64,000 bases of DNA, from positions 558,001-622,000 of the forward strand of contig NZ_BAABAU010000001.1 in the NCBI RefSeq assembly GCF_039537585.1, given 5' to 3'. The stretch comes from Frondihabitans peucedani (GTDB taxonomy: Bacteria; Actinomycetota; Actinomycetes; Actinomycetales; Microbacteriaceae). Below are positions 2,574-64,000 of this stretch, one piece after another (position 1 is the first letter of the stretch; each line of letters starts with the position of its first letter). The notes beneath the pieces were generated by a model. The model had not been told where the DNA came from. It saw only the letters and a program-made list of their open reading frames with translations, and did not search any database. A program made the position numbers and the translations under genes.

Positions 2574-3878
2574 GTGAGCGCTTCGCGCCAGCAGGATCCG
2601 GCGGCGAAGCAGAAGACGCTGGCCTGGCTCCGAACGGTGTCGGGCGAGTTCGCGACCGCCACGATCAAGAAGCTCGACGAGACGCTGCCCTGGTACGGCT
2701 CCATGCCGCCGGGGCGGCGCTCGGCGGTCGGGCTCGTGGCGCAGGCGGGCATCACCTCGTTCATCAGCTGGTTCGACGACCCGAGGTCGACGCCCTGGAT
2801 CGCCGCCGACGTCTTCGGTGCGGCTCCCCGCGAGCTGCTCCGGAGCGTCAGCCTCCAGCAGACCCTGCAGCTGATCCGCGTCACCTGCGAGGTCGTCGAA
2901 GACCGGGTGAAAGACGGCGACAGCTACCTCCGCGAGGCGATCCTGCTCTACTCGCGCGAGATCGCGTTCGCCGCGGCCGACGTCTACGCCCGGGCCGCCG
3001 AGGCCCGAGGCCTCTGGGACGCCCGCCTCGAGGCTCTCGTCGTCGACTCGATCCTGTCCGGCGAGTACGACGACGAACTCCCGAGCAGGATCGCGGCGCT
3101 CGGCTGGCACGGGCACGGCGAGGTCTCCGTCCTGGTCGGCACCGCTCCCCGCATGCTCGATGTCGACGTGCTGCGCCGCACGGCCCGTCACCTCGACGCC
3201 GACGTCCTGATCGGCGTGCAGGGCTCCCGCCTCGTCCTCGTCATCGGACGAGCCGACGACGAGCGCGACGAGACCGACACCGCGACGCACGCCCGGCCGA
3301 GCTTCACCGACATCGCAGCAGCCCTCGAGCCGGGCTTCGGCGACGGCCCCCTGGTGCTCGGCCACGAGGTGCCCGGGCTCGTCGACGCGTCCGGCAGCGC
3401 GAAGGCGGCGCTGGCCGGCTTCGCCGTCGCCCGCGCCTGGCGGAACGCCCCGCGGCCCGCCCTCGCCGACGACCTCCTGCCCGAGCGCGCCCTCGCCGGC
3501 GACCCGGTCGCCCGCGCGACCCTCGTCAATCGCATCTACCGCCCTCTCAAGGCCCACTCGTCCGAGCTCTTGACGACCCTCTGGTGCTACCTCGACAACG
3601 GCCGATCGCTCGAGGCCACGGCCCGCGAGCTGTTCGTGCACCCGAACACGGTGCGGTACCGCCTGAAGCGCGTCACCGACGTCATCGGGTGGGACGCGAC
3701 CGGGGCGCGAGAGGCCCTCATCCTGCAGTCGGCCCTGATCCTGGGCTCGATCTCCGACCCCGACGCTCCGTCAGGCCGACCGAAGAGCCACGTGCAGCCC
3801 GACGCGACGAAGCGCGCTGCGGCAGCCCCGAGGCTCGTCGCCGCGCCCCGGCCGAAGAAGCACGGCCCGACCTCATGA
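2574..3878 (+). CDS. PucR-type transcriptional regulator, FasR-like activator of fatty-acid genes
   Basis: 434-residue protein with a C-terminal PucR helix-turn-helix (about residues 340-400: SLEATARELFVHPNTVRYRL). The rest is a long sensor-like region without a recognised ligand motif. In Streptomyces coelicolor the PucR-like protein FasR sits immediately upstream of fabD-fabH-acpP-fabF and activates them; the same gene order here supports that role (inference from synteny and family). The start is GTG, 7 bases after the aceE stop, with no strong ribosome-binding site, consistent with translational coupling. The last 40 residues are basic, low-complexity and probably disordered. Not to be confused with the TetR-type FasR of Corynebacterium and Mycobacterium. 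Confidence 0.88.
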   Translation: MSASRQQDPAAKQKTLAWLRTVSGEFATATIKKLDETLPWYGSMPPGRRSAVGLVAQAGITSFISWFDDPRSTPWIAADVFGAAPRELLRSVSLQQTLQLIRVTCEVVEDRVKDGDSYLREAILLYSREIAFAAADVYARAAEARGLWDARLEALVVDSILSGEYDDELPSRIAALGWHGHGEVSVLVGTAPRMLDVDVLRRTARHLDADVLIGVQGSRLVLVIGRADDERDETDTATHARPSFTDIAAALEPGFGDGPLVLGHEVPGLVDASGSAKAALAGFAVARAWRNAPRPALADDLLPERALAGDPVARATLVNRIYRPLKAHSSELLTTLWCYLDNGRSLEATARELFVHPNTVRYRLKRVTDVIGWDATGAREALILQSALILGSISDPDAPSGRPKSHVQPDATKRAAAAPRLVAAPRPKKHGPTS

Positions 3879-3957
3879 GCGACCCCTACAACGGTTTCGT
3901 CGATTCTTGGTCGAGTCGCCACACCGCGAAGGCCCCGATGGTTGGCAGGATGGTCCA

Positions 3958-4881
3958 GTGATCGTTCTCGTAGCCCCCGGGCAAGGTTCTCAGACACCCG
4001 GCTTCCTCACCCCCTGGATCTCCGATGCCGGCTCCCGAGCCCTCGTCGAGCAGCTCTCCGACGCCGCCGGGGTCGACCTCGTCGCTCACGGCACGACTTC
4101 CGACGCCGACACGATCCGCGACACCGCGATCGCCCAGCCCCTCATCGTGGCTGCCGGGCTCGTCACGGCCCGGGCGCTGTTCGACCGGGTCGACCGTTCG
4201 CTTATCGCGGGCGTGGCCGGCCACTCGGTCGGAGAACTGACCGCGGCAGCCCTCGCGGGGGTCGTCACCGAGGCCGACGCCGTCTCGCTCGTGACCGTGC
4301 GCGCCCGCGGCATGGCCGAGGCCGCTGCTGCCGAGCCGACCGGCATGAGCGCCGTGCTCGGCGGCGACGAGGACGAGCTCCTCGCGAAGCTCGCCGAGTT
4401 CGGTCTCGAGCCCGCCAACTTCAACGGGGGCGGTCAGATCGTCGTCGCCGGCTCGCTCGACGCGCTCGCGCGGCTGGCCGCGGAGCCGCCTGCGAAGGCG
4501 CGTGTGGTGCCGCTGCAGGTGGCCGGTGCGTTCCACACCCGGTACATGAAGCCCGCCGTGGCCGCACTCGAGACGGCTGCCGCCGGTGTGACGGCGGCGG
4601 ATCCTGCGCTGTCGCTCTGGACCAACCACGACGGCTCGATCGTCGCCTCGGGGCGCCAGTATCTCGACCTGCTCGTCCAGCAGGTCGCCTCACCCGTCCG
4701 CTGGGACAAGACGATGGAGTCGTTCCAGGCGGCAGGCATCACCGGCCAGATCGAGCTCGCTCCGGCCGGAGCCCTGACCGGCCTCGCCAAGCGCGGCCTC
4801 AAGGGCGTGCCGACCGTCGCCATCAAGACCCCCGACGACCTCCAGGCCGCCGTCGACCTCCTGCAGGGAGCAGCAGCATGA
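3958..4881 (+). CDS. fabD: Malonyl-CoA:ACP transacylase
   Basis: Loads malonyl groups from CoA onto acyl carrier protein in type II fatty-acid synthesis. 307 residues. The family hallmarks are GQGSQ near residue 8, the active-site serine in GHSVGE near residue 90 and the catalytic histidine in AFHTRYM near residue 193. The GTG at 3958 is chosen because the protein then begins MIVLVAPGQGSQ, the usual N-terminus; the in-frame GTG at 3907 would add 17 uncharacteristic residues. A purine-rich AGGATGG lies just upstream, which could be a weak ribosome-binding site or part of a -10-like CAGGAT six bases from the start. First gene of the fab cluster, its stop overlapping fabH. Confidence 0.96.
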   Translation: MIVLVAPGQGSQTPGFLTPWISDAGSRALVEQLSDAAGVDLVAHGTTSDADTIRDTAIAQPLIVAAGLVTARALFDRVDRSLIAGVAGHSVGELTAAALAGVVTEADAVSLVTVRARGMAEAAAAEPTGMSAVLGGDEDELLAKLAEFGLEPANFNGGGQIVVAGSLDALARLAAEPPAKARVVPLQVAGAFHTRYMKPAVAALETAAAGVTAADPALSLWTNHDGSIVASGRQYLDLLVQQVASPVRWDKTMESFQAAGITGQIELAPAGALTGLAKRGLKGVPTVAIKTPDDLQAAVDLLQGAAA

Positions 4882-5894
4882 GCAACCCCACCCCCGCCCT
4901 CCGTCAGAACCCGACGCGCGAGTTCACGCGCATCCTCAGCCTCGGCGCCGCCCGAGGCGACCTGACGGTGCCGAACTCCGAGATCATCGAGCCGATCGAC
5001 TCCTCCGACGAGTGGATCCGCCAGCGCACCGGCGTCATCACGCGCAAGCGCGCCAGCCGGGAGGTCGGAGCCGTCGACCTGGCCGAGACCGCGGCCCGCG
5101 AGGCCATCGAGAAGGCCGGCATCCGGCCCGACCAGATCGGCGCGGTCCTCGTCTCGACGGTCAGCAACGTCGTCCTCACGCCCTCGATGGCCACGCTCCT
5201 CGCCGAGCGCGTCGGGGCGAACCCGGCCGCCGCCTACGACATCAGCGCCGCCTGCGCCGGGTACACCTACGGCATCGCCCAGGCCGACGCCCTCATCAAG
5301 TCGGGCATCGCCGACTACGTGCTCGTCGTCGGTGCCGAGAAGCTCAGCGACATCATCGACCCGACCGACCGCTCGATCTCGTTCCTCCTCGGCGACGGCG
5401 CGGGCGCCGCGGTCGTCGGGCCGAGCGACACCCCCGGCATCTCCCCCACCATCTGGGGCTCCGACGGCTCGAAGTGGGACACCATCGGCATGACGTCGAC
5501 GTTCCGCGAGTACCGCGAGAGCGGTGACGCCGCAGCGTGGCCGACCATCCGCCAGGAGGGCCCGACCGTCTTCCGCTGGGCCGTCTGGGAGATGGTCAAG
5601 GTCGCCAAGCTCGCCATCGAGAAGGCCGGCATCCAGGCATCCGACCTCGCCGCGTTCGTGCCCCACCAGGCCAACATGCGCATCATCGACGAGTTCGCGA
5701 AGCAGCTCGGCCTCCCCGACACCGTGGTCATCGGACGAGACATCGAGGACACCGGCAACACCTCGGCCGCGAGCATCCCGCTGGCGACCCACCGCCTGCT
5801 GCAGGAGAACCCCGGACTCTCCGGCGGCCTCGCGCTCCAGATCGGCTTCGGAGCCGGCCTGGTCTTCGGCGCGCAGATCGTCGTCCTGCCCTAG
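4878..5894 (+). CDS. fabH: Beta-ketoacyl-ACP synthase III
   Basis: Starts fatty-acid elongation by condensing an acyl-CoA primer with malonyl-ACP. 338 residues. The catalytic Cys is in SAACAGYTYG (about residue 125), His in VPHQANMRI (about 262) and Asn in GNTSAAS (about 294), so the C-H-N triad is intact. The start ATG overlaps the fabD stop (ATGA), giving tight coupling. In branched-chain actinobacteria FabH usually prefers iso/anteiso acyl-CoA primers; substrate choice cannot be read here. The upstream in-frame extension through fabD coding sequence is not used. Confidence 0.96.
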   Translation: MSNPTPALRQNPTREFTRILSLGAARGDLTVPNSEIIEPIDSSDEWIRQRTGVITRKRASREVGAVDLAETAAREAIEKAGIRPDQIGAVLVSTVSNVVLTPSMATLLAERVGANPAAAYDISAACAGYTYGIAQADALIKSGIADYVLVVGAEKLSDIIDPTDRSISFLLGDGAGAAVVGPSDTPGISPTIWGSDGSKWDTIGMTSTFREYRESGDAAAWPTIRQEGPTVFRWAVWEMVKVAKLAIEKAGIQASDLAAFVPHQANMRIIDEFAKQLGLPDTVVIGRDIEDTGNTSAASIPLATHRLLQENPGLSGGLALQIGFGAGLVFGAQIVVLP

Positions 5895-5931
5895 CACCAG
5901 GAGCCCCTCCGCGCCAGAACCTGCGCGTCGC

Positions 5932-5960
5932 TCGGCTGGCCGGAGCGCGTGCCCTAGGAT
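5932..5960 (+). promoter_or_regulatory. Possible promoter for acpP
   Basis: The 103-base gap between fabH and acpP contains a -10-like TAGGAT at 5955-5960, about 38 bases before the acpP ATG. The region 17 bases upstream (TCGGCT) is a poor -35. Acyl carrier protein is needed in large excess over FabD/FabH, so an extra promoter here would make sense, but the sequence evidence is only the -10 hexamer. Confidence 0.35.
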
Positions 5961-5997
5961 TTACCCGGTCACAACGACACCTCAAGGAGAGAACACA

Positions 5998-6246
5998 ATG
6001 GCACAGTCCACCGAAGAAGTCCTGGCCGGCCTGGCCGAGCTCATCAACGACGAGACCGGTATCGCCACCGACACCGTCGAGATGGACAAGTCGTTCACCG
6101 ACGACCTCGACATCGACTCGATCTCGATGATGACCATCGTGGTCAACGCCGAAGAGAAGTTCGACGTCAAGATCCCCGACGACGAGGTCAAGAACCTCAA
6201 GACCGTCGGCGACGCTGTGACCTTCATCACCAAGGCGCAGGGCTAA
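5998..6246 (+). CDS. acpP: Acyl carrier protein
   Basis: 82-residue acidic carrier protein holding growing acyl chains on a 4'-phosphopantetheine arm. The attachment serine is Ser41 in DLDIDSISMM, a variant of the classical DSL motif with Ile after Ser. A strong ribosome-binding site AAGGAG precedes the ATG. It has its own upstream gap with a possible promoter and a strong hairpin directly downstream, so a short abundant acpP transcript is likely. It sits between fabH and fabF as in other actinobacteria. Confidence 0.97.
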   Translation: MAQSTEEVLAGLAELINDETGIATDTVEMDKSFTDDLDIDSISMMTIVVNAEEKFDVKIPDDEVKNLKTVGDAVTFITKAQG

Positions 6247-6255
6247 ATCGTTCGT

Positions 6256-6292
6256 CCGCTCGGCCCGCGTCTCGAAGGCGCGGGCCGAGCGG
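6256..6292 (+). terminator. Hairpin after acpP (probable terminator or attenuator)
   Basis: Perfect 14-bp stem (CCGCTCGGCCCGCG at 6256-6269 with its complement at 6279-6292) and a 9-base loop, starting 9 bases after the acpP stop. There is no T-run, only GTTTCAC after the stem, as is common for GC-rich actinobacteria. It lies between acpP and fabF, so it probably lowers fabF expression or protects the acpP 3' end rather than ending the operon completely. Confidence 0.75.
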
Positions 6293-6345
6293 CGTTTCAC
6301 CCCTCGTGACGCTCACGTCGCGAGCTCGTTGAGAAAGTTGTCAGA

Positions 6346-7581
6346 GTGACCAAGAAGATCGTCGTCACCGGTATCGGTGCCACCACCCCCCTCGGCGGGA
6401 CGATGGCCGACAGCTGGCGTGCCCTGCTCGCCAAAGAGAGCGGCATCTCCACCATCGAGGCCGAGTGGACAGAGCGCTACGACCTCCCCGTCCGCTTCGC
6501 CGGCCAGATCAAGGTCGACCCGGCCGAGGTCCTGTCCCGTCAAGAGACCAAGCGTCTCGACCCCTCCAGCCAGTACGCGCTCATCGCTGCGCGCGAGGCG
6601 TGGGCCGACGCAGGATCCCCCGAGGTCGTCCCCGAGAGGCTCCTGGTCGACTGGGCCACCGGCATCGGCGGCATCTGGACCCTCACCGACGGCATGGACA
6701 CCCTCCGCGAGAAGGGTCCGCGCCGGGTCCTGCCGATGACCGTGCCCATGCTCATGGCCAACGGCCCCGCCGCGGCCGTGTCGATGGACCTCGGTGCTCG
6801 TGCCGGAGCCCGCACGGTCCTGTCGGCCTGCGCGTCGAGCACCGAGTCGATCGTCAACGCGTACGAGCACCTCCAGCTCGGGCACGCCGACATCGTCGTC
6901 ACCGGAGGCTCGGAGGCTGCGATTCACCCGCTGCCGCTCGCCGCGTTCGCGTCGATGCACGCCCTCTCGACCCGGTCCGACGATCCTGCGACCGCCTCCC
7001 GGCCCTACGACGTCACCCGCGACGGCTTCGTGCTCGGCGAGGGCGCAGGCGCCCTGGTGCTCGAGACCGAGGAGCACGCGCTCGCCCGCGGCGCCCGGAT
7101 CTACGCCGAGGTGCTCGGCGGCGGCGTCACGAGCGACGCGTTCCACATCACCGCGCCCGACCCCGAGGGCACCGGCGCGGCCCGCGCCGTCGTGATGGCG
7201 CTCGAGGCCTCCGGTGTGGAGCGCGACAAGGTCGCGCACATCAACGCGCACGCGACGTCCACCCCCGTCGGCGACATCGCGGAGTACCACGCGCTGCTCC
7301 GGGTCTTCGGCGAGCACCTGTCGTCGGTGGCCCTGTCAGCGACGAAGGCGTCCACCGGCCACCTCCTCGGCGGTGCCGGGGCGATCGAGGCTGCCTTCAC
7401 GGTCATGGCGCTGCACACCCGCACCGCCCCGCCGACGATCAACACGACGCAGACCGACGACGAGATCGACATCGACCTCGTCACCGAGCCGCGTCAGCTG
7501 GCCGACGGCGAGCTCGTCGCGATCTCGACGTCGTTCGGGTTCGGCGGCCACAACGCGGTCATCGCGTTCAAGACGGTCTAG
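6346..7581 (+). CDS. fabF: Beta-ketoacyl-ACP synthase II
   Basis: Elongating condensing enzyme of fatty-acid synthesis. 411 residues with N-terminal VVTGIGATTPLGG, the active-site Cys in SACASST (about residue 162) and the two catalytic histidines in NAHATSTPVGD (about 300) and STGHLLGGAGA (about 338). The C-terminal FGFGGHNA is typical. The GTG start at 6346 has the weak ribosome-binding site GAGAAAG. It closes the fab cluster and is followed by a very long hairpin before the convergent DUF3145 gene. Confidence 0.96.
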   Translation: MTKKIVVTGIGATTPLGGTMADSWRALLAKESGISTIEAEWTERYDLPVRFAGQIKVDPAEVLSRQETKRLDPSSQYALIAAREAWADAGSPEVVPERLLVDWATGIGGIWTLTDGMDTLREKGPRRVLPMTVPMLMANGPAAAVSMDLGARAGARTVLSACASSTESIVNAYEHLQLGHADIVVTGGSEAAIHPLPLAAFASMHALSTRSDDPATASRPYDVTRDGFVLGEGAGALVLETEEHALARGARIYAEVLGGGVTSDAFHITAPDPEGTGAARAVVMALEASGVERDKVAHINAHATSTPVGDIAEYHALLRVFGEHLSSVALSATKASTGHLLGGAGAIEAAFTVMALHTRTAPPTINTTQTDDEIDIDLVTEPRQLADGELVAISTSFGFGGHNAVIAFKTV

Positions 7582-7610
7582 CTCGAGAGGCTGACGCTGT
7601 GGCGCCCGAC

Positions 7611-7665
7611 AACGGCGCCACAGGACGGCGGCGCCACAAGACAACGGCGCCACAGGACGGCGGCG
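7611..7665. repeat. Tandem direct repeat, 32-bp period, about 1.7 copies
   Basis: The 23-base unit beginning AACGGCGCCACAGGACGG occurs at 7611-7633 and again, exactly, at 7643-7665. The second copy merges into the left arm of the large hairpin at 7645-7708. Located between convergent fabF and DUF3145. Probably created by duplication of part of the hairpin. Confidence 0.8.
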
Positions 7666-7708
7666 GCACCGGTCCGCGGACTGGTGCCGCCGCCGTCCTG
7701 TGGCGCCG
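7645..7708. terminator. Very long bidirectional hairpin between fabF and DUF3145 gene
   Basis: A perfect 26-bp stem (7645-7670 with 7683-7708) whose 12-base loop can pair further (GGTCC with GGACT), leaving almost no unpaired tip. It lies between two convergent genes, 63 bases after fabF and 11 bases past the end of the minus-strand gene, so it can end transcription from both sides. No T-run is present. Similar long hairpins occur at 26702-26763 and 47288-47360. Confidence 0.8.
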
Positions 7709-7719
7709 CTCTGGAGTGG

Positions 7720-8250
7720 CTAACCGACCTTGTGCAGCCAGACGACCGGGTTGCCCTCGCCCGCGTGGCGGAAGGCCTCGAGCTCGTCGTCCCAGGCCTG
7801 GCCGAGCGCGAGCCGGAGTTCGCGGTGCAGCTCGAGCGCGTTCGATCCTGCGATCTCCATCGCGTAGCGGACGCGGTCTTCGGGGATCACGGTGTTGCCG
7901 ACCGAGTCGGTCTGCGCGAAGAAGACGCCGAGGTCGGGCGTGTGCATCCAGCGACCGCCGTCGGCACCGGCGGACGGGTCTTCGGTCACCTCGTAGCGGA
8001 GGTGTTCCCAGCCGCGGAGCGCGGACGCGATCTGGGCACCGGTGCCCGCTGGGCCCTCCCAGTAGAACTCGGTGCGCAGGGAGCCCTTGAGGGCCGGCTG
8101 GTCGCTCCAGGTGAAGTTCACGGCGCGCCCGAGGGCACGACCAGCAGCCCACTCGACATGTGGGCTCAGAGCACGGGGGGACGAGTGAACGAACAGCACG
8201 CCCCGCGCGCTCGGCGCAGTGTTTGTTTGTGCAGCCACGTGAAGCTCCAT
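7720..8250 (-). CDS. DUF3145 family protein
   Basis: 176-residue conserved actinobacterial protein of unknown function. It shows the family pattern: an N-terminal GVLFVHSSPRALSPHVEWA, then WSDQPA, FYWEGPAGTG, LRGWEHLRYEVTEDPS and a C-terminal acidic helix with WDDELEAFRHAGEG. No signal peptide, membrane segment or catalytic motif is recognised. It sits at the end of the fatty-acid cluster in convergent orientation. A promoter with a 5' leader of about 50 bases lies upstream. The family assignment is secure; no function should be inferred. Confidence 0.88.
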   Translation of the reverse strand: MELHVAAQTNTAPSARGVLFVHSSPRALSPHVEWAAGRALGRAVNFTWSDQPALKGSLRTEFYWEGPAGTGAQIASALRGWEHLRYEVTEDPSAGADGGRWMHTPDLGVFFAQTDSVGNTVIPEDRVRYAMEIAGSNALELHRELRLALGQAWDDELEAFRHAGEGNPVVWLHKVG

Positions 8251-8306
8251 TCGGTTAGGTGCGACTTCCCCATCGACCTGTGAATGGAACTGCGGTGCTT
8301 CTACGA

Positions 8307-8336
8307 ATTATGACCGAGACCCCCTGAGAATCACAA
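8307..8336 (-). promoter_or_regulatory. Promoter for the DUF3145 gene
   Basis: On the minus strand, TTGTGA (8331-8336) and CATAAT (8307-8312) are separated by 18 bases, a good match to a housekeeping sigma promoter. The -10 ends 56 bases before the ATG at 8250. The region is markedly AT-richer than its surroundings. Confidence 0.65.
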
Positions 8337-8371
8337 GGGCGTGATCGAAGGGGGGTGGTGACCCGACACTC

Positions 8372-10006: not shown

Positions 10007-10033
10007 GTGTTCGAGTCTAGGCGGGACGGCCGG

Positions 10034-14048: not shown

Positions 14049-14089
14049 GTTCCTCCGATGCTCTGATCGGAAGACTGGCACGGCTGACA

Positions 14090-53691: not shown

Positions 53692-53700
53692 CAGTGTCTT

Positions 53701-54162: not shown

Positions 54163-55218
<1,056 letters not shown>

Positions 55219-55226
<8 letters not shown>

Positions 55227-55596: not shown

Positions 55597-55637
55597 GCCG
55601 TTCATCGTACCGACGCCCGCAGACAGTGGCTCGGCCC

Positions 55638-56369: not shown

Positions 56370-56371
56370 GA

Positions 56372-57481
56372 TCAGAAGTTCAGGAACCGGTCGCGCAGCT
56401 TGCCGAACAGCCCCTGCTGGAACTGGGAGAGCTCGGGCTTCTCGTGCTTGCGGCCGGAGGCGAACTTCTCGATCAGCTCGCGCTCCTTGTGGCTGAGCTT
56501 CGTCGGCGTCACGACCTGGATGCCGATCTTGAGGTCGCCGCGCCCGGAGCCGCGGAGCCTCGTGACGCCGCGGTCCTTGATCGTGACGACGTCGGCGCTC
56601 TGCGTGCCGGGCTTGACCTCGACCTGGATGTCGCCGTCGAGGGCCTTGACCGTCGTCGTCGTGCCGAGGATCGCGTCGGCCATCTGCACTTCGAGGGTCG
56701 CGAGCAGGTCGTCGCCGTTCCGGCTGTAGACGTCGTGGTGCTTGACCTTGACCTCGAGGTAGAGGTCGCCGTTGGGGCCGCCGGCCGGGCCGACCTCGCC
56801 CTGGCCGGGCATCTGCAGGCGGATGCCGGTGTCGACGCCGGCGGGGATGTCGACGGGGATCGTGCGGCGGGCGCGGACGCGGCCCTGACCCTGGCAGGTC
56901 GGGCACGGGTTCGGGATGACGGTGCCGTAGCCGCGGCAGGTGCCGCAGGGGCTCGAGGTCATGACGTTGCCGAGGAGCGAGCGGACCGTGCGCTGGATCT
57001 GGCCGGAGCCGCCGCAGATGTCGCAGGTCTGCGGGCTGGTGCCCGGAGCGCAGCACGAGCCGTGGCAGGTGTCGCAGAGGACGGCCGTGTCGACCTCGAT
57101 GTCGCGCTGGACGCCGAAGACGATGTCGTCGAGCTCGACCTCGAGCCGGAGCAGGGCGTCTTGACCGCGCTCGCGCCTCGACCTCGGGCCTTGCCGCTGC
57201 TGCTGGGCGCCGCCGAAGAAGGCGTCGAAGATGTCGCCGAACCCGCCGGCTCCTCCACCCTGACCGCCGAAGCCCTGCTGCGGACCGAGGTCGTAGCGCT
57301 GCCGCTGCTGCGGGTCGCTCAGGACGTCGTAGGCGTGCGTCACCTCCTTGAACCGCTCGGAGGCCTCCGGGCTCGGGTTGACGTCGGGGTGCAGCTCGCG
57401 CGCGAGCTTCCGGTACGCCTTCTTGATCTCGTCGGGGGTCGCCTGTCGGTCGACTCCCAGGACGTCGTAGTGATCTGCCAC
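56372..57481 (-). CDS. dnaJ: Chaperone DnaJ (DnaJ2, hrcA-linked)
   Basis: 369 residues: J-domain with HPD (about 31-33), Gly/Phe-rich linker [19 protein letters not shown], four zinc repeats ([31 protein letters not shown]), and the C-terminal substrate-binding domains. Co-chaperone of DnaK. Encoded 85 bases after hrcA, the standard actinobacterial arrangement; expression is probably under HrcA/CIRCE. Confidence 0.96.
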
Positions 57482-57566
57482 TTGTCTCCGTCGTGCTGCT
57501 TGGTTCTGTCTGGCTGCTGGATGCTGCGCGCGGGCGCGGCACCGTGGTCTGTGGTGGGGCGGGGCG

Positions 57567-58589
57567 CTAGTGCTCGCCCAGGAGCCCCGAGAGGTAGCGG
57601 GCGACGGCGCGGACCGCCGCCATGTTGCTGGAGTAGTCCATGCGGGTGGGCCCGAGGACGCCGACCCGGGCGATGTCGCCGCCCGAGGCGGTGTAGCCCG
57701 ACGCGACGACCGACGTCTGCGCCAGGCCGAACGACTCGTTCTCGCGGCCGATGCTGGCGACGACGTCGACGTCGCCCGAGCGCATCTCGCCGAAGAGCCG
57801 CAGGAGCGTCACCTGCTCCTCGATCGCCTCGAGCACCGGGAACAGGTTGCCCGAGAAGTCGTCTTCGGTGAGGACGAGGTTCGCAGCGCCCGCCATGACG
57901 AGCTTCTCGTGCCGGCCGGCCGAAGCCTGACCGATGAGGCTCGCGACGACGACGTCGACGACCGGGCGGCGCTCGGGGCGGAACTGCTCGGGGAAGCCGG
58001 CCAGGAGGCCGCCGGCCTCGACGAGCGACCGGCCGCCGATCAGCCCGTTGAGCTTGGCGCGGAGCTTGCCGAGGAACGCCTCGTCGACGACGGCGCCCGT
58101 GTCGACCGTCCGCTGCTCGACGTGGCCCGCGTCGGTGATGAGGACGCTCATGACGCGGGTGTCGCTGAGGCGCACCAGCTCGACGTGCCGGACCGCGGCG
58201 CTCGAGAAGGTCGGGTACTGCACCAGGGCGACCTGGTTGGTCAGCTGCGAGAGCAGCCGGACGGTGCGCGAGAGGACCTCGTCGAGGTCGGACGAGTTGC
58301 CGAGGAACGTCTCGATCGCGGTGCGCTGGGCCTGCGAGAGCGGGCGGAGGTCGGCCATCCTGTTGACGAAGAGGCGGTAGCCCTTGTCGGTGGGGACCCG
58401 GCCGGAGGACGTGTGGGGGGCCGCGATCAGCTCCTCCTCCTCGAGGAGGGCCATGTCGTTGCGGATGGTGGCCGCCGACACGCCGAACTGGTGCCGGTCG
58501 ACGATGGACTTCGAACCGACGGGCTCGCGCGACTCGACGTAGTCGTGCACGATGACCCGGAGGACCTCGAGACCTCTCTCGCTGACCAC
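57567..58589 (-). CDS. hrcA: Heat-inducible transcription repressor HrcA
   Basis: 340 residues: winged-helix N-terminus ([39 protein letters not shown]), then [20 protein letters not shown], a GAF-like middle and C-terminal [21 protein letters not shown]. Represses its own operon and chaperone genes at CIRCE boxes. GTG at 58589 is preferred as GGAGG is then 6-7 bases upstream; GTG at 58595 is the alternative. A CIRCE-like site lies 48 bases upstream. Confidence 0.95.
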
Positions 58590-58636
58590 GGACACCTCCT
58601 GCCTCGACACACCCGGACGACGGGCCGCGACCGATG

Positions 58637-58663
58637 CTGGCACTCCGTCGATGAGACTGCCAA
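58637..58663. promoter_or_regulatory. CIRCE-like HrcA operator
   Basis: CTGGCACTC-N9-GACTGCCAA compared with the consensus TTAGCACTC-N9-GAGTGCTAA: 14 of 18 positions match and the spacer is exactly 9. It sits just upstream of hrcA, where the autoregulatory site is expected. Confidence 0.75.
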
Positions 58664-58786
58664 TGCTACTCCACGCCGGTGACAGCCTCTGGTTCGAGGC
58701 CACCGCGTGCCGCTATGCTCAGGCCGTCCACAGCCTTCCCAGGCGTCACGGGGCAGGCACCCAGGCGACCACGATTGGCGACGACC

Positions 58787-59173
58787 ATGAGCGACTACAA
58801 GAACCCCGCCGGCGAGCCGTACGGCGGCGGCGCCGCACCCCAGCCGATGCGGCCGGAGGACGAGAAGCTCTGGGCGACCCTCATCCACGTCGGCGGGATC
58901 GTCCTCGGGTTCGTCGCGGCGCTCGTCGGCTACCTCGTGCTGCGCGACCGCGGACCTTTCATCAAGGAGCACACGCGCGTCGTCCTGAACTTCCAGCTCA
59001 CCGTGCTGATCGGCTACGTCGTCGGCGCAGCGCTGTCCGTCATCGGGATCGGCGTCGTGATCAGCCTGGTCGTCTGGATCCTGTCGATCGTGTTCTCGAT
59101 CCTGGCCGCTCTCGCCGCCAATCGCGGACAGTACTACCGGTACCCCCTGACGATCGAGTTCATCAGGAGCTAG
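58787..59173 (+). CDS. DUF4870 (Tic20-like) small membrane protein
   Basis: 128 residues: polar N-terminus with PEDEKLWATLIHVGGIV, a first helix GGIVLGFVAALVGYLVL, KEHTRVVLNFQLTVLIGYVVGAAL, and a third VVISLVVWILSIVFSILAAL; ends with YRYPLTIEFI. This is the standard DUF4870 layout, function unknown. ATG at 58787; a TATGCT near 58713 may be its -10. Stands between divergent hrcA and convergent hemW. Confidence 0.9.
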   Translation: MSDYKNPAGEPYGGGAAPQPMRPEDEKLWATLIHVGGIVLGFVAALVGYLVLRDRGPFIKEHTRVVLNFQLTVLIGYVVGAALSVIGIGVVISLVVWILSIVFSILAALAANRGQYYRYPLTIEFIRS

Positions 59174-59184
59174 TCGCCGAGCAG

Positions 59185-60411
59185 CTAGTCGCCCAGGAGC
59201 CGCCGCACGACGGCGTCGGCGAGCAGCCGCCCGCGGAGCGTCAGCCGGATCGTGCCGCCGAGGGCCGCCCGGCCGTCGACGAGCTCGTCGGCGATCAGCC
59301 CGGGGATCGCTCGGCGGCCGTCGGCGTCGAGCTCATCGGTCTTCAGCTCGTCGCGCACGCGGACGGCGAGCAGGACGCGCTCGGTGCTCCGGGTCTCGGC
59401 ATCGAGGGTCTCGCGCCCAGCGGCGGGTGACACCCCGGCGAGCACGCGGTCGGCGTAGGCCGCCGGATGCTTCACGTTCCACCAGCGGACTCCCCCGACG
59501 TGGCTGTGGGCTCCCGGCCCGACGCCCCACCAGTCGTGCCCCTGCCAGTACGCCAGGTTGTGCCGGCTGGCGTGCCCGTCGCCGCGCGACCAGTTGCTGA
59601 CCTCGTACCAGTCGTAGCCGGCCTCGGCCAGGCGTCGGTCGGCCAGCTCGTACATGTCGGCCGCCGTGTCGTCGTCCGGCATCGCCACGTCGCCACGCCG
59701 GACCTGCCGCGCGAGCTTCGTGCCGTCCTCGACGATGAGGGAGTACGCCGACAGGTGGTCGGGTTCCTGGGCCAGAGCGGCGTCGAGGGAGCGGCTCCAG
59801 TCGTCGAGACTCTCGCCGGGCGTGCCGTAGATCAGGTCGAGGCTGACGTCGAGGCCGGCCTCGCGGGCCCAGCGGACGACGAGCGGGATCCGCGCAGGAT
59901 CGTGCGTGCGCTCGAGGGTCGCGAGCACGTGCGGCACCGCCGACTGCATCCCGAAGCTCACGCGGGTGAACCCGGCGGCTCGGAGCTCGTCGAGGTAGGC
60001 CCGGTCGACGGAGTCCGGGTTCGCCTCGGTGGTCACTTCGGCCCCCTCGGCGAGACCCCAGGTGTCGCGCACGGCACTCAGCATGCCCGCGAGATCGCTC
60101 GACGGGAGGAGGGTCGGGGTGCCGCCGCCGAAGAACACGGTCGACGCCGACCGCTCGGGAAGGCCTGCCTCGCGCAGGATCAGCCCCGCCTGCTCGACCT
60201 CGAGTGCGGCCTGCCCCGCGTAGTCGCTCCGCTTCGCCCCGCGGAGCTCGTCGCCGGTGTACGTGTTGAAGTCGCAGTAGCCGCAGCGGACCCGGCAGAA
60301 CGGGACGTGCAGGTAGACGCCGAAGTTCCGGGTCTCGGCGCCGTCGCGGACGCTCGTCGGCAGGAGGCCGTCGGCGGGAGCCGGATCGGCGATCGGGAGG
60401 GTGCTCGGCAC
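59185..60411 (-). CDS. hemW: Radical SAM protein HemW (heme chaperone-like)
   Basis: 408 residues with the radical-SAM cluster motif CRVRCGYC (CxxxCxxC, about 39-46), TVFFGGGTPTLL, TTEANPDSVD, RVSFGMQSAV, DLIYGTPGES, and a C-terminal HemN-like domain. In actinobacteria often annotated oxygen-independent coproporphyrinogen oxidase, but the CxxxCxxC form lacking the fourth Cys fits HemW. GTG start, 3 bases after the DUF1990 stop. Confidence 0.94.
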   Translation of the reverse strand: MPSTLPIADPAPADGLLPTSVRDGAETRNFGVYLHVPFCRVRCGYCDFNTYTGDELRGAKRSDYAGQAALEVEQAGLILREAGLPERSASTVFFGGGTPTLLPSSDLAGMLSAVRDTWGLAEGAEVTTEANPDSVDRAYLDELRAAGFTRVSFGMQSAVPHVLATLERTHDPARIPLVVRWAREAGLDVSLDLIYGTPGESLDDWSRSLDAALAQEPDHLSAYSLIVEDGTKLARQVRRGDVAMPDDDTAADMYELADRRLAEAGYDWYEVSNWSRGDGHASRHNLAYWQGHDWWGVGPGAHSHVGGVRWWNVKHPAAYADRVLAGVSPAAGRETLDAETRSTERVLLAVRVRDELKTDELDADGRRAIPGLIADELVDGRAALGGTIRLTLRGRLLADAVVRRLLGD

Positions 60412-60414
60412 GCG

Positions 60415-61065
60415 CTAGTCGCCCACCAGCACGCGGAGGTAGCGCTGGGTGTACTTGTTCTGCTGCGCCCGGAGGAACGGCGAGACCAGCCGCCACTTCC
60501 AGTTCGACGGCCGCGAGAAGGCTCGGACGGTCAGCCAGACGGAGCCGTCGTCGGTCTGGTCGATGACCCACGACTCCTCGCCGCTCTCGGGGTGGCCCTC
60601 GAGGGTGCCGTAGGCGAAGCCCTTGCGGGTCGGCTCGTCGATCACGTAGACCACGCGGACCGGCGCGTGCGTCGTCCGGCCGTAGGCCTTGATCACGAGA
60701 GTGGCCGTCGTGCCCGCCGTCAGGAACGGCTCGCCCTCGGGCGAGAAGTGCGACTCGCCGTCCGGGGCCGCGTAGTCGGCAGGATCGAGCGGGTTGCCCT
60801 GGTCGTCGAACGTGACGGGCGTGTAGGCGCCCTCGTCGACGGCGGGCACGGAGTCGACGTGCACGGTGATGCCGCTGCGCTCCTGGACCTTCCAGGTCAT
60901 GATCGCAGCCCAGGCCGCTTCGAAGCGCGCGTCGCCGTGACCGATGCGGGTGCGGTACTCGACGGGACGGAATCCTGCCGGCGGATACTGCAGGAGGTCG
61001 GGTGCCTGCGTCGCCCCGACCTGCCCGTAGGTGGTCTGGGTCTCGGTGTGGGTCGCTCGGCGCAT
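60415..61065 (-). CDS. DUF1990 family protein
   Basis: 216 residues: GFRPVEYRTRIGHGDARFEAAWAAIMTWKV, then VRVVYVIDEPTRKGFAYGTLEGHPESGEE and C-terminal RAFSRPSNWKWRLVSPFLRAQQ, the usual DUF1990 pattern. No catalytic motif is known. ATG is 6 bases after TAGACT (61072-61077), a leaderless promoter. Followed by hemW with a 3-base gap. Confidence 0.9.
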   Translation of the reverse strand: MRRATHTETQTTYGQVGATQAPDLLQYPPAGFRPVEYRTRIGHGDARFEAAWAAIMTWKVQERSGITVHVDSVPAVDEGAYTPVTFDDQGNPLDPADYAAPDGESHFSPEGEPFLTAGTTATLVIKAYGRTTHAPVRVVYVIDEPTRKGFAYGTLEGHPESGEESWVIDQTDDGSVWLTVRAFSRPSNWKWRLVSPFLRAQQNKYTQRYLRVLVGD

Positions 61066-61128
61066 TCGGAAAGTCTACTTCCCGTGCCGAGAGGCAGCCT
61101 GCGCAGGGCGCCTCCCGGACCCCGGCGG

Positions 61129-61287
61129 TCAGACGCGGCTGCGGACGTTCCGGACGATCCAGCCGATGACGGCCAGCACGAACAGGATGATGCCGATGAC
61201 GATCAGGAACTTCAGGGCGGCGACGAAGATGCCGAATCCGAAGATGACGATGGCGGCGATGATCAGGACGATGAAGAGGACAGGCAT
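61129..61287 (-). CDS. Small hydrophobic membrane protein, 52 residues
   Basis: MPVLFIVLIIAAIVIFGFGIF followed by a second hydrophobic helix (VAALKFLIVIGIILFVLAVIGW) and a basic tail IVRNVRSRV. ATG with GAGG 3 bases upstream. The sequence is rich in Ile/Val/Phe with a positive C-terminus, so probably one hairpin or one long helix in the membrane. Family not recognised. Encoded between lepA and DUF1990, same strand as both. Confidence 0.7.
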   Translation of the reverse strand: MPVLFIVLIIAAIVIFGFGIFVAALKFLIVIGIILFVLAVIGWIVRNVRSRV

Positions 61288-61338
61288 GACCTCAGCCAAC
61301 TCGCACTTCTCGTGCTGCGCCCGAGAGCGCCTCGCGGG

Positions 61339-63189
61339 CTACTTGGCCTTGGCCTTCTCGGTGTCGCCGGAGAGCGCCGCGATGAAGGCCTCCTGGGGCA
61401 CGTCGACCCGGCCGATCGTCTTCATGCGCTTCTTGCCCTCCTTCTGCTTCTCGAGGAGCTTGCGCTTGCGGGTGATGTCACCGCCGTAGCACTTCGCGAG
61501 CACGTCTTTCCGCATCGCGCGGATCGACTCGCGCGCGATGATCCTGGCGCCGATGGCCGCCTGGATCGGCACCTCGAACTGCTGCCGCGGGATGAGCTCG
61601 CGCAGCCGGCCCGTCATCAGGACACCGTACGCGTAGGCCTTGTCGCGGTGGACGATCGTCGAGAAGGCGTCGACCTGCTCGCCCTGGAGGAGGATGTCGA
61701 CCTTCACCAGGTCGGCCTCCTGCTCGCCGCTCGGCTCGTAGTCGAGGCTGGCGTAGCCCTGGGTCTTGCTCTTCAGCTGGTCGAAGAAGTCGAACACGAT
61801 CTCACCGAGGGGCATGTTGTAGCGGAGCTCGACGCGGTCTTCGCCGAGGTACTCCATGCCGAGGAGCGTGCCGCGGCGGCCCTGGCAGAGCTCCATGATG
61901 ACGCCGACGTAGTCTTTCGGCGCCAGGATCGCGGCCTTGACCACGGGCTCGGCGACGCTCTGGATCTTGCCGTCGGGGAACTCCGACGGATTGGTGACCG
62001 TGACGGTCTTCTTGTCTTCGGTCGTCACCTCGTAGACGACGCTCGGAGCCGTCGTGATGAGGTCGAGGTTGAACTCGCGCTCGAGGCGCTCGGTGATGAT
62101 CTCGAGGTGGAGCAGGCCGAGGAACCCGCAGCGGAAGCCGAAGCCGAGCGCGACCGACGTCTCGGGCTCGTACACGAGCGCGGCGTCGGAGAGCTTGAGC
62201 TTGTCGAGCGCCTCGCGGAGCACCGGGTAGTCGCTGCCGTCGATCGGGTACAGGCCCGAGAAGACCATCGGCAGCGGCTCGGTGTAGCCGGGGAGCGCCT
62301 GCGTCGCCGGCTTCGACGCGGTGGTGACCGTGTCGCCGACCTTCGACTGGCGGACGTCTTTCACGCCGGTGATCAGGTAGCCGACCTCGCCGACGCTGAG
62401 GCCCTTCGAGGCGAGCGGCTCGGGCGACGAGACGCCGATCTCGAGGATGTCGTGGACCGCGCGGGTCGACATCATCTGGATCTTCTCGCGCGGCTGCAGG
62501 GTGCCGTCGATCATGCGCACGTAGGTGATGACGCCGCGGTAGCTGTCGTAGACGGAGTCGAAGATCATCGCCCGCGCGGGGGCGTCCTTCTCGCCCTTCG
62601 GCGCGGGGATCCGCTGGACGACGACGTCGAGGAGCTCCTCGACGCCCATGCCGGTCTTGCCGCTGACGCGCAGCACGTCTTCGGGCCGGCCGCCGATCAG
62701 CTGCGCGAGCTCGGCCGCGTACTTGTCGGGGTCGGCGGCGGGGAGGTCGATCTTGTTGAGGACCGGGATGATCTCGAGGTCGTTCTCGAGAGCGAGGTAG
62801 AGGTTCGCGAGCGTCTGCGCCTCGATGCCCTGCGCCGCGTCGACGAGCAGGATGGCGCCCTCGCAGGCGGCCAGCGACCGGGAGACCTCGTAGCTGAAGT
62901 CGACGTGGCCGGGGGTGTCGATCATGTTGAGCGCGTACGTCGTGCCGTCGACCGCCCACGGCATGCGGACCGCCTGGCTCTTGATCGTGATGCCGCGCTC
63001 GCGCTCGATGTCCATCCGGTCGAGGTACTGCGCGCGCATGGCGCGGTCTTCGACGACCCCGGTGATGCCGAGCATCCGGTCGGCGAGCGTCGACTTGCCG
63101 TGGTCGATGTGCGCGATGATGCAGAAGTTGCGGATGACCTCGGGCGCGGTCGACGCGGGCTCGAGGGCGGTTGCTGCTTTGGGGCTCAC
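61339..63189 (-). CDS. lepA: Elongation factor 4
   Basis: 616 residues. Translational GTPase that back-translocates or remodels stalled ribosomes. G1 [13 protein letters not shown]2 RERGITI, G3 DTPGHVD, G4 [10 protein letters not shown]-terminal EF4-specific domain with [16 protein letters not shown]. The GTG at 63189 ([13 protein letters not shown]) has AAGGA 5 bases upstream; an ATG at 63237 would add 16 low-complexity residues. Confidence 0.96.
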
Positions 63190-63333
63190 GCGGTCCTTCT
63201 GGTGGTGGTGGGTGTTCGCTTCGGACGATTCTCCCATGCCCCGGGCGGAGCGGGGGCCGCTCTCCGGCAGGCTGGGGAGAACTCCGCCGGGCTGTCGGGA
63301 GATCCGGCGAGGAGTGCGCGGAGGGGCAGCGCC

Positions 63334-64000
63334 TCAGGAGGCCCGGCGAGGAGAGGGCAGGAGCCCGAGTCCGCGGACGATGCCCTCTCGGGGTGAGGCC
63401 AGGCTGATCCTGATCCAGCCCTCGCCCGAGCGCCCGAACGCGCTGCCCGGCGCCACGGCCACCCGCTGCTCCAGCAGGAACTCCTCCGCCCAGGTCGCGA
63501 CGTCGCCGCGCGAGACGTGCGACACGTCGATCCAGAGGTAGAACGCGCCCTCGGGGCGGAGGTAGGCGAGCCCCCGCTCGTCGAGGATCGACATCGCGAG
63601 CTCGAGATTGCCGCGGTAGTGCTCCCTCGCGTCGGCCACCGGCTGGTTGTCGCCGACGATCGCGGCCAGCGCTGCGAACTGGTCGGGCTCGGCGACGCAG
63701 CTGATCTGCGCCTCCTGCACCGTACGCATGGTGTCGGCGAGCCCCCTCGGCGTGACGAGGTAGCCCACGCGCACGCCCGTCATCGCGTAGGTCTTGCTCA
63801 GCGAGAAGACGCTGAAGACGCGGTCGTCGTCGTCGAGGGCGGCCAGACTCACGTGCGAGGCGCCGTAGGTGAAGTACTCGTAGACCTCGTCGCTGACGAC
63901 CCAGAGGTCGTGCTCCTTCGCAAACGCCAGGAGGCCGCGCAGGATCTCCTCGCCGAACACGACCCCGAGCGGATTGGATGGCGAGTTCACGATGATCGCC
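63334..64000 (-). CDS. Class I/II aminotransferase (5' end outside window)
   Basis: The C-terminal 221 residues are visible; the frame is open across the window edge. PLP-binding Lys in SLSKTYAMTGVRVGY, the upstream Asp/Tyr region VVSDEVYEYFTYG, NSPSNPLGVV, and the substrate carboxylate Arg in GWIRISLAS. Typical of aspartate/aromatic-type aminotransferases (fold type I); exact substrates unknown. It would run about 170 residues more upstream. Confidence 0.9.
   Translation of the reverse strand, partial: AIIVNSPSNPLGVVFGEEILRGLLAFAKEHDLWVVSDEVYEYFTYGASHVSLAALDDDDRVFSVFSLSKTYAMTGVRVGYLVTPRGLADTMRTVQEAQISCVAEPDQFAALAAIVGDNQPVADAREHYRGNLELAMSILDERGLAYLRPEGAFYLWIDVSHVSRGDVATWAEEFLLEQRVAVAPGSAFGRSGEGWIRISLASPREGIVRGLGLLPSPRRAS

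What the first reader, a model, noticed from the sequence alone, without database searches (positions are those of the whole stretch)
2591..63944. Dispersed GCAGGAT(C/G) motif, about 70 copies, in all frames and both orientations
Scanning by eye I count about 44 GCAGGAT and 26 ATCCTGC in 64 kb. With about 70% GC, chance predicts around 6-7, and the equal-composition CCAGGAT appears far less often (about 18 by eye). Extended form is (G)CGCAGGAT(C/G). Copies lie inside genes in every frame and force rare codons: Asp-Pro-Ala is written GAT CCT GCG at 4600, 6982, 21254 and 44145, Gln-Asp as CAG GAT at 18302, 21113 and 39154, Ala-Gly as GCA GGA at 6609, 43806 and 44386. Genes of this GC content normally use GAC, CCC/CCG, GCC and GGC. 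This is selection on the DNA word itself, as for DNA-uptake sequences in Neisseria/Haemophilus, a chromosome-maintenance signal or a methyltransferase target. I know of no such described word in Microbacteriaceae.
Basis: partly seen in the sequence, partly recalled or inferred. Interest (0 to 1): 0.78.

Follow-up and report, generated by a model that had tools for sequence, protein, structure and literature searches.

The report
Genome-wide DNA watermark with family dialects
The chromosomes of many members of one family of soil and plant bacteria are peppered with up to thousands of copies of a short DNA word whose core stays the same while its edges differ from genus to genus, which looks like a self-recognition label for DNA and which we did not find described in the papers we could search.

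Summary
The window has 71 GCAGGAT (45+26; shuffles give 7.1). The whole genome (a Frondihabitans, Microbacteriaceae) has 3,208 GCAGGATC and 1,749 CGCAGGATC, against 22 and 4 for the reversed words. The excess survives shuffling of synonymous codons (219 vs 31 in sampled genes), is above expectation in all six frames, lies on both strands and shows no clear replication polarity. A plasmid-like contig of the same assembly is at chance level.

The main new result: this is one dialect of a family-wide set of words built on GGAT that differ by genus or clade. Examples are CGGATGCC (Agromyces, Herbiconiux daphne; 4,305 copies in A. terreus), CGGATCC (Clavibacter), AGGGATC (Leucobacter) and GGATGCGC (Leifsonia). 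CGGATGCC stays near background in 184 genomes of other families of the order. Curtobacterium shows at most a trace, Amnibacterium nothing clear.

Best explanation: a DNA-uptake-sequence-like self label, as in Neisseriaceae. Uptake was not tested, no receptor was found, and competence genes occur with or without the word. KOPS-like and RecBCD/Chi-like readings failed tests. I found no description in the papers searched.

The parts
1003..63946 (.). 77 copies of the core CAGGATC (45 +, 32 -) spread over the window, in genes and between them; the 32 full copies CGCAGGATC are listed below
   Evidence: positions; 45 + / 32 -
4600..4608 (-). CGCAGGATC, in called gene 3907-4881 as GAT CCT GCG (Asp-Pro-Ala)
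6609..6617 (+). CGCAGGATC, in called gene 6346-7581 (GCA GGA TCC)
6982..6990 (-). CGCAGGATC, in called gene 6346-7581 as GAT CCT GCG
7844..7852 (-). CGCAGGATC
8970..8978 (-). CGCAGGATC
9750..9758 (+). CGCAGGATC
14794..14802 (-). CGCAGGATC
18302..18310 (+). CGCAGGATC
21248..21256 (+). CGCAGGATC, left half of the palindrome CGCAGGATCCTGCG
21253..21261 (-). CGCAGGATC, right half of the same palindrome
21765..21773 (+). CGCAGGATC, left half of a second palindrome
21770..21778 (-). CGCAGGATC, right half of the second palindrome
25364..25372 (-). CGCAGGATC
25716..25724 (+). CGCAGGATC
26302..26310 (+). CGCAGGATC
32002..32010 (+). CGCAGGATC
35928..35936 (+). CGCAGGATC (inside dnaG, 34473-36422)
39972..39980 (-). 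CGCAGGATC
42502..42510 (+). CGCAGGATC
42809..42817 (-). CGCAGGATC
43805..43813 (+). CGCAGGATC
44145..44153 (-). CGCAGGATC
44386..44394 (+). CGCAGGATC, in called gene 44249-44947 (GCA GGA TCG)
46016..46024 (+). CGCAGGATC
46548..46556 (+). CGCAGGATC
46775..46783 (-). CGCAGGATC
52441..52449 (+). CGCAGGATC
54104..54112 (+). CGCAGGATC
55876..55884 (-). CGCAGGATC
59893..59901 (+). CGCAGGATC
60173..60181 (+). CGCAGGATC
63938..63946 (+). CGCAGGATC

Best explanation
The word is a species-recognition label of the chromosome that works like the DNA uptake sequences of Neisseriaceae and Pasteurellaceae. Shown here: a short non-palindromic word (CAGGATC, best form CGCAGGATC) is present in thousands of copies, in excess in all six frames, without clear replication polarity. 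It is at chance level on a relaxase-bearing, plasmid-like contig of the same assembly. It is one dialect of a family-wide set of words that share GGAT and differ in their flanks from clade to clade. Inferred: a sequence-reading DNA receptor on the competence machine (ComEA-ComEC, found 2-6 kb beyond the window's right edge, with a Tad- or type-IV-type pilus) binds DNA that carries the local dialect. Such DNA is then taken up and recombined more often, so new copies of the word spread wherever the protein sequence tolerates them.
For: Genome-wide excess: 3,208 GCAGGATC, about 870/Mb; from recall this is close to published DUS/USS densities. Survives the codon control, above expectation in all six frames, though one frame has only 2 against 0.2. 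Of the single changes at positions 3 to 8 of CGCAGGATC none is clearly enriched (0-1.8 times, one at 2 copies against 0.5); the final C is looser (CGCAGGATG 43 against 14), as are the flanks. No clear leading/lagging bias: 103:110 GCAGGATC in the own genome, 130:113 in G087, 64:71 in G047, 29:35 in G150. Contig C2 carries a TrwC relaxase and has 4 CAGGATC in 60 kb (67/Mb), at its codon-shuffle level (3 against 4.2 in genes); the sampled chromosome has 1,339/Mb. Word rather than place: in the window, GCAGGATC sites are identical in 18 of 28 aligned positions in the closest relative but in only 2 of 27, 5 of 25 and 10 of 32 in three others, no better than same-composition controls. The 54 pairwise one-base differences at core sites (not independent) fall on all seven positions; 50 are transversions, against 4,019 of 5,611 at same-composition words, so no single mismatch class makes the sites. 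Dialects with a shared core by clade, with the strong CGGATGCC excess limited to the family among 198 genomes of the order. ComEA and ComEC lie together; ComEC is in 18 of 18 and 37 of 37 genomes. In Micrococcus luteus tad pili are required for transformation, and comEA/EC together with tad clusters is frequent in actinobacteria (PMC4322843, passages). In Neisseriaceae eight dialects share a core CTG (PMC3630211, abstract and passages).
Against: No uptake or transformation data exist for these strains here. No receptor was identified. ComEC is equally present in genera with a trace or nothing clear of the word (Curtobacterium, Amnibacterium). A PilB/PilT-like pair (my reading of T2SSE hits) does not track the word: seen in Curtobacterium and Amnibacterium, not in Clavibacter and Leucobacter celer, whose sets have the word. 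TadE was not detected at E <= 1e-3 in the own, word-richest genome, though a T2SSE hit that I take for a Tad-type ATPase was. The low count on contig C2 would also follow from recent acquisition or from its lower GC. The second replicon of G201 is poorer in the word than its chromosome but above codon expectation in genes (8 CAGGATC against 3.6). In G150 one dialect word leans to the lagging strand (44:75, p 0.01 uncorrected, one of 12 tests). Word frequency varies about four-fold between species of the genus.
Confidence: 0.45

Rival explanations
1. The word is the binding site of a chromosome-organising or nucleoid protein of this family, read in both orientations and unrelated to DNA uptake; its specificity drifts between genera.
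For: Chromosome-wide, orientation-neutral, at chance on a plasmid-like contig. Competence and pilus genes do not track presence of the word.
Against: Known site-specific chromosome organisers (parS, Noc, MatS, SlmA; recalled) have tens to hundreds of sites, not 3,000. Individual sites turn over between species of one genus.
Confidence: 0.22
2. HIP1-like: a word-specific methyltransferase with linked mismatch repair or gene conversion creates and maintains the word without any use of it as a label.
For: Precedent: HIP1 and alternate HIPs in cyanobacteria go with methyltransferases of matching specificity, and a methylation-dependent repair model was proposed (PMC4390886, abstract and section 2.6). 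GGATC/GGATG are plausible methylation targets (recalled). Some palindromic forms are enriched too: CGGATCCG 21/3.0 in Clavibacter, AGGATCCT 13/1.3 in G047.
Against: The leading words of nearly all sets, the own one included, are not palindromes. Differences at the sites fall on all seven positions and on several base changes, not on one mismatch class. A contig in the same assembly stays at expectation. No methylation data or methyltransferase search was made here.
Confidence: 0.16
3. Chi-like recombination hotspot recognised by a helicase-nuclease during break repair.
For: Chi is also a short non-palindromic word that is rarer in foreign DNA and differs between lineages (recalled).
Against: RecC (PF04257) is found in 0 of 31 genomes (family members and one Arthrobacter), while the E. 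coli control rings. No clear leading-strand preference; from recall, E. coli Chi is about 75% on the leading strand. AddAB and AdnAB were not tested.
Confidence: 0.12
4. KOPS/AIMS-like polar signal that directs FtsK or marks replichores.
For: A local tilt inside the window (45 + to 26 - for GCAGGAT) and a 318:223 association of CAGGATC with the local G-rich strand in the own genome.
Against: Replichore test: 103:110 in the own genome, 130:113 in G087, 64:71 in G047 for GCAGGATC. The local tilt probably follows gene orientation through the Ile-Leu codon pair (inference).
Confidence: 0.02
5. Ordinary codon or dinucleotide bias of a 70% GC genome.
For: About a tenth to a quarter of the copies in window genes are explained by codon usage (2.2 of 21 CGCAGGATC, 12.7 of 52 GCAGGAT). 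Other words also exceed codon shuffles about two-fold or so in other sets (for example CGAGCAG 124/48 in A. terreus), so the shuffle leaves some context bias.
Against: Codon shuffles, dinucleotide shuffles and the reversed-word control do not give the excess, and 194 of 199 family genomes have at most 178 CGCAGGATC.
Confidence: 0.01

Closest known systems
DNA uptake sequence (DUS) dialects of Neisseriaceae
   Same: Short non-palindromic word in very high copy number in both orientations; a shared core (CTG there, GGAT here) with flanks that differ by clade.
   Different: Actinobacteria, monoderm, about 70% GC; no ComP-type receptor identified; no uptake assay; word frequency varies about four-fold between species of one genus.
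Uptake signal sequence (USS) of Pasteurellaceae
   Same: Similar density and orientation neutrality (recalled).
   Different: Different word, no AT-rich flank seen in the logo of 438 sites; diderm host (recalled).
HIP1 and alternate HIPs of cyanobacteria
   Same: Hyper-abundant words with lineage-specific replacements.
   Different: HIPs are palindromic and go with matching methyltransferases; here the leading words are mostly non-palindromic and no methyltransferase was sought.
Chi sites (RecBCD and relatives)
   Same: Short non-palindromic, lineage-specific word.
   Different: Here several times denser (from recall of E. coli numbers), without clear strand bias, and without RecC.
KOPS / architecture-imparting sequences
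   Same: Dispersed octamers on the chromosome.
   Different: Those are strongly polar with replication (recalled); these are not.

Membership tests
DUS/USS-type uptake sequence | One short word far above codon and composition expectation, genome-wide | tested here: met
DUS/USS-type uptake sequence | Both orientations, no replication polarity | tested here: met
   four genomes, sampled stretches, terminus assumed opposite dnaA; one of 12 word tests at p 0.01 uncorrected
DUS/USS-type uptake sequence | Dialects with shared core across a family | tested here: met
   top 8-mer contains GGAT in 8 of 8 Frondihabitans/G047 sets and 15 of 23 other sets
DUS/USS-type uptake sequence | Scarce in mobile DNA | tested here: inconclusive
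   one relaxase-bearing contig (67/Mb against 1,339/Mb, at codon expectation) and a 450-kb second contig of G201 (300/Mb against 1,167/Mb, but 8 against 3.6 in genes); age of these elements unknown
DUS/USS-type uptake sequence | Competence machinery in the genome | tested here: inconclusive
   ComEA, ComEC and a Tad-type ATPase hit present, but ComEC also in genera with little or no word
DUS/USS-type uptake sequence | Sequence-specific DNA uptake or transformation | not testable with these tools
   needs a bench assay
DUS/USS-type uptake sequence | Dedicated receptor whose sequence tracks the dialect | not tested
   no candidate isolated
HIP1-type iterated palindrome | Palindromic word | tested here: not met
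   CAGGATC, CGGATGC, AGGGATC are not palindromes; palindromic CGGATCCG (Clavibacter) and AGGATCCT (G047) are enriched as side forms
HIP1-type iterated palindrome | Matching methyltransferase | not tested
   -
Chi | RecBCD present | tested here: not met
   PF04257 in 0 of 31 genomes; AddAB/AdnAB not tested
Chi | Leading-strand bias (as in E. coli; recalled) | tested here: not met
KOPS/AIMS | Strong replichore polarity | tested here: not met

The most novel reading that the evidence does not exclude
An actinobacterial family carries a family-wide, genus-dialected self-recognition code for DNA, GGAT with clade-specific flanks. It would be the first uptake-sequence system in monoderm high-GC bacteria (as far as I recall and could search), read by a still unknown receptor. 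It may set genetic boundaries between genera and appears to have switched or decayed repeatedly (Frondihabitans, Leucobacter and its sister G047, Clavibacter, Curtobacterium).
Probability: 0.42. Interest if true: 0.88.

Novelty: new variant of a known kind. Interest (0 to 1): 0.8.

Why it matters
Natural transformation in Actinobacteria is little studied outside Micrococcus luteus, and the known self-labelling uptake words are, as far as I recall, confined to two proteobacterial families. It could also give a practical handle, adding the local word to donor DNA, for hard-to-transform non-pathogenic Microbacteriaceae. Even if the use is not uptake, a word-specific force that acts on thousands of sites across a family with clade-specific targets needs an explanation.

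Tried and rejected
Codon or composition artefact: rejected. Replichore-polar signal: rejected (the first, GC-skew-based look had given a misleading 318:223 in the own genome and 193:187 in G087). RecBCD/Chi: disfavoured. One-mismatch conversion (Vsr-like): disfavoured. Regular spacing: gaps look Poisson-like (CV 1.10, 315 gaps). Inverted pairs: only a few (four at offset 4 in 404 kb). Pili as the discriminating factor: TadE and T2SSE distributions do not track the word. Conservation of individual sites: clearly above control only towards G201 and G087, so a fixed regulatory role was dropped; in G004 and G150 the change of dialect contributes to this.

Limits: genes were called by a crude GC3 rule (coding fraction 0.66-0.79). 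The 43-locus background set was kept to GC above 0.685 without L048. Contig C2 (L091) was left out of the own-genome chromosomal set. Named genera are those returned by a DnaG search (best 80 of 583 relatives), mostly 48-66 kb of coding sequence per genome (28 kb for Cryobacterium suzukii), some sets pooled from several strains. Dialects in G201, G004, G199 and G200 rest on 60 kb each. In one search the top 8-mer contains GGAT in 15 of 23 sets; in the other 8 (Lacisediminihabitans, other Cryobacterium, both Curtobacterium sets, Arthrobacter, Amnibacterium, Schumannella, Agreia) it does not, though Schumannella and other Cryobacterium have GGAT words lower in their lists. The two palindromic double sites of the window count once per strand. 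In the order search the 14 Microbacteriaceae come from only four genera.
Full report
WHAT IS THERE. The window is 70.2% GC and holds GCAGGAT 45 times forward and 26 times reverse; dinucleotide shuffles give 7.1, largest 13. The 9-mer CGCAGGATC occurs 32 times against 2.0. The same-composition CCAGGAT has 21. The window is C1:558001-622000 of a 3.69-Mb assembly in 12 contigs. Its genus is Frondihabitans: one genome of the same genus (G200) has a 1,056,865-base contig, the length of Frondihabitans sp. PhB188 contig NZ_RJUO01000001.1. Genes identified in the window are ordinary housekeeping genes (aceE, dnaG, leuA, lepA, hrcA, hemW and others; 10 proteins per call).

GENOME-WIDE. CGCAGGATC has 863 + 886 copies in the genome and its reversed-letter control 4. 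GCAGGATC has 1,579 + 1,629, control 22. In 404 kb of sampled own chromosome the strongest words against 43 loci of other, similarly GC-rich genomes include CAGGATC (541 against 85.5), GCAGGATC (333 against 33) and CGCAGGATC (178 against 10.9). Around the core, C at -2 and G at -1 are preferred. Single changes at positions 3 to 8 of the 9-mer bring the count to or below expectation or at most to 1.8 times (for example CGCAGCATC 7 against 23; one rare form has 2 against 0.5). The last base and the outer flanks are looser (CGCAGGATG 43 against 14; CTCAGGATC 21 against 0).

CODON CONTROL. I permuted synonymous codons within each called gene, which keeps the protein and the codon usage. In the own genome's sampled genes GCAGGATC is 219 against 31.4, the first of all 8-mers by z. 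In the window's genes it is 34 against 4.7, largest of 200 shuffles 11. By frame and strand the counts are 23/0.5, 40/3.4, 28/2.4, 44/1.2, 2/0.2 and 82/20.1. Only the last frame, Ile-Leu ATC CTG, has a sizeable codon expectation. The control is not perfect: unrelated words such as CGAGCAG also exceed it about 2.6-fold in A. terreus.

POLARITY, SPACING, PLACE. dnaA lies at C1:1.809 Mb. Taking the terminus as opposite, GCAGGATC is 103 leading to 110 lagging in sampled C1, 130:113 in G087, 64:71 in G047 and 29:35 in G150. In G150 the word CAGGATGC is 44:75 (p 0.01, uncorrected, one of 12 tests). Spacing is close to random. Between the own genome and its closest relative G201, 18 of 28 ungapped aligned GCAGGATC sites are identical, against 38% for same-composition words. 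For G004, G150, G200, G199 and G087 the numbers are 2 of 27, 5 of 25, 10 of 32, 9 of 24 and 9 of 17, with controls of 32-37%. So sites turn over; only G201 and G087 clearly exceed the control, and the change of dialect in G004 and G150 contributes. In these pairwise comparisons, which are neither independent nor polarised, the 54 single-base differences at core sites fall on all seven positions, most often on the two end bases. Of them 50 are transversions, against 4,019 of 5,611 at same-composition words.

MOBILE DNA. Contig C2 of the own assembly (94 kb, 64% GC) carries a TrwC relaxase, so I take it for a plasmid; circularity and transfer genes were not checked. In 60 kb of it the core occurs 4 times (67/Mb) against 1,339/Mb on the sampled chromosome, which matches its own codon expectation (3 against 4.2 in genes). 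The 450-kb second contig of G201 has 12 in 40 kb (300/Mb) against 1,167/Mb on its chromosome, with 8 against 3.6 in genes. Recent arrival could explain this too.

RELATIVES: ONE GENUS, THEN THE FAMILY. Among 199 family genomes CGCAGGATC is high in the four sampled members of the own genus (1,749, 1,156, 467, 392) and in one genome of another genus, G047 (407). The remaining 194 have at most 178. All 7 genus members held carry the excess to differing degrees: GCAGGATC 3,208, 2,980, 2,135, 2,092, 1,013, 919 and 844. Against codon shuffles the best word shifts within the genus: AGGATCCG in G004 (19/1.5), CAGGATGC in G150 (75/16), GCAGGATC in G087 (171/24). GCAGGAGC, which lacks GGAT, is also raised in G087 (163/50) and G150 (92/28).

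Named genomes of other genera have other words, and most contain GGAT: the top 8-mer does in 15 of 23 sets. Examples are Agromyces terreus CGGATGCC 66/11.3; Herbiconiux daphne CGGATGCC 42/7.2; H. moechotypicola CGGATGCG 30/7.2; Glaciibacter AACGGATG 22/2.2; Leifsonia sp. Root227 GGATGCGC 53/8.9; L. poae CCGGATGC 29/6.9; Pseudoclavibacter GGATGCGC 35/7.7; Agrococcus CGGATGCG 35/6.0; Microcella GGATGCTC 34/5.6; Salinibacterium GGATGCCC 37/7.8; Clavibacter CGGATCC (7-mer) 85/14.9; Leucobacter pool CGAGGGAT 19/2.5; Mycetocola ACGGATGC 17/3.4 (second by z, after GGATGCCA). In Schumannella GGATGCG (7-mer, 61/16.3) leads the 7-mers, but no GGAT word leads its 8-mers.

A cross-table of ten words over all sets shows each word highest in its own clade and by and large near 1 elsewhere, for example CAGGATC 4.4 in the own genome, 2.1-3.9 in the other Frondihabitans and G047, 2.3 in the pooled Curtobacterium, 1.7 in the Leucobacter pool and 0.4-1.5 in the rest. 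AGGGATC is 5.2 in Leucobacter and 5.9 in Clavibacter (10 copies), but also 3.0 in Arthrobacter (13 copies). CGGATGC is shared by many genera. GGAT alone is 0.84-1.37 times expectation over all sets, so the whole word counts. Weak by codon shuffle: Agreia and Lacisediminihabitans, whose whole-genome CGGATGCC counts (1,162 and 1,414) are nevertheless about three times the Curtobacterium or Arthrobacter density, and Cryobacterium suzukii (28 kb sampled; 1,720 whole-genome copies against 177). Nothing clear in Amnibacterium, Curtobacterium flaccumfaciens or Arthrobacter; pooled other Curtobacterium show a trace of CAGGATC (43/18).

Whole-genome counts agree. CGGATGCC has 4,305 copies in A. terreus, 3,076 in H. 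daphne and 2,590 in Glaciibacter, with reversed-word controls of 185, 297 and 135, while Arthrobacter sp. M2012083 has 457 against 223 (28 genomes). Across 198 genomes of the order, 12 of 14 Microbacteriaceae (from four genera) have 1,554-4,093 copies, 7-22 times the reversed control; G000 and G164 do not. The 184 genomes of other families reach at most about 160/Mb and 3.9 times the reversed control by my reading of the table. On a DnaG tree Frondihabitans is the sister of Curtobacterium, and G047 that of Leucobacter, so the AGGATC form of G047 looks like a parallel dialect.

MACHINERY. ComEA (HHH_3 and SLBB) and ComEC lie together (as longest frames, overlapping) at L087:2101-5576, that is C1:624101-627576, just past the window's right edge. 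ComEC is in 18 of 18 and 37 of 37 genomes tested; the two sets share at least one genome. T2SSE hits that I take for a Tad-type ATPase are seen widely, and a PilB-PilT-like pair only in some genera (25 genomes). TadE is found in 28 of 31, not in G000, G087 or H. moechotypicola. None of these separates genera with and without the word, so machinery is compatible with uptake but gives no support of its own. RecC is in 0 of 31.

INTERPRETATION. The anatomy (non-palindromic, dispersed, orientation-neutral, whole-word specificity, site turnover, chance level on a plasmid-like contig, clade dialects around a shared core) is that of an uptake-sequence system. The parallel with Neisseriaceae, where eight dialects share an essential CTG core, is close (PMC3630211, abstract and passages). 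That the word is used in uptake is inference. A non-polar chromosome-binding protein and a methylation-linked process (HIP1 model, PMC4390886, abstract and section 2.6) remain open.

LITERATURE. Searches for Frondihabitans with natural transformation, DNA uptake sequence with Actinobacteria and overrepresented, and uptake sequence with Microbacteriaceae held no paper. Microbacteriaceae with natural competence (2 papers), uptake signal sequence with Actinobacteria (2), Clavibacter/Leifsonia with overrepresented words (6) and overrepresented words with Chi, octamer and Actinobacteria (16, 10 listed) gave none that looked like a description of this, judged from the listings. PMC2843746 on abundant octamers mentions neither Leifsonia, Clavibacter nor GGATC (term search and one passage). 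PMC6370729 (passages) describes the DUS of Neisseria and the Flp pili of M. luteus; a term search of PMC12849477 for uptake-sequence words found none. The library holds open-licence papers only.

The transversion tally got its missing control; the plasmid statement, the membership row on mobile DNA, the palindromic side forms and the sets without a GGAT word were stated more exactly.

Noticed in passing
G000:C1:2145069-2147819: Adjacent T2SSE hits that look like PilB (E 3e-139) and PilT (E 2e-50), as in type IVa pili, in 7 of 7 Frondihabitans genomes and several other Microbacteriaceae, but not seen in Clavibacter, Herbiconiux daphne, Leucobacter celer, Pseudoclavibacter or Agreia (25 genomes).
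   Followed up: partly
window 21248-21261 and 21765-21778: Two complete palindromes CGCAGGATCCTGCG (two overlapping inverted copies) about 500 bases apart; four inverted GCAGGATC pairs at this offset in 404 kb of the own genome.
   Followed up: no
L091, L242, L243 (G000:C2): A 94-kb, 64% GC contig with a TrwC relaxase/helicase and a DUF1016-YhcG nuclease, probably a plasmid.
   Followed up: partly
G201:C2:178926-179999: A second DnaG-like primase (42% identity) on the 450-kb second contig of a relative.
   Followed up: no
G199:C1:2981383-2982173: ComEC match split over two frames in this relative, a frameshift or a sequencing error.
   Followed up: no
L127-L129 (G199): The palindrome CCTATAGG occurs at 6 places in 60 kb (12 when both strands are counted), against about 0.1 expected from the background loci, which suggests a local repeat family.
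   Followed up: no
G164 versus G106, G317, G331, G345, G399, G413 (genus g85): One of seven genomes of this genus has only 313 CGGATGCC while the others have 1,554-3,329: a loss or dialect switch inside a genus.
   Followed up: no
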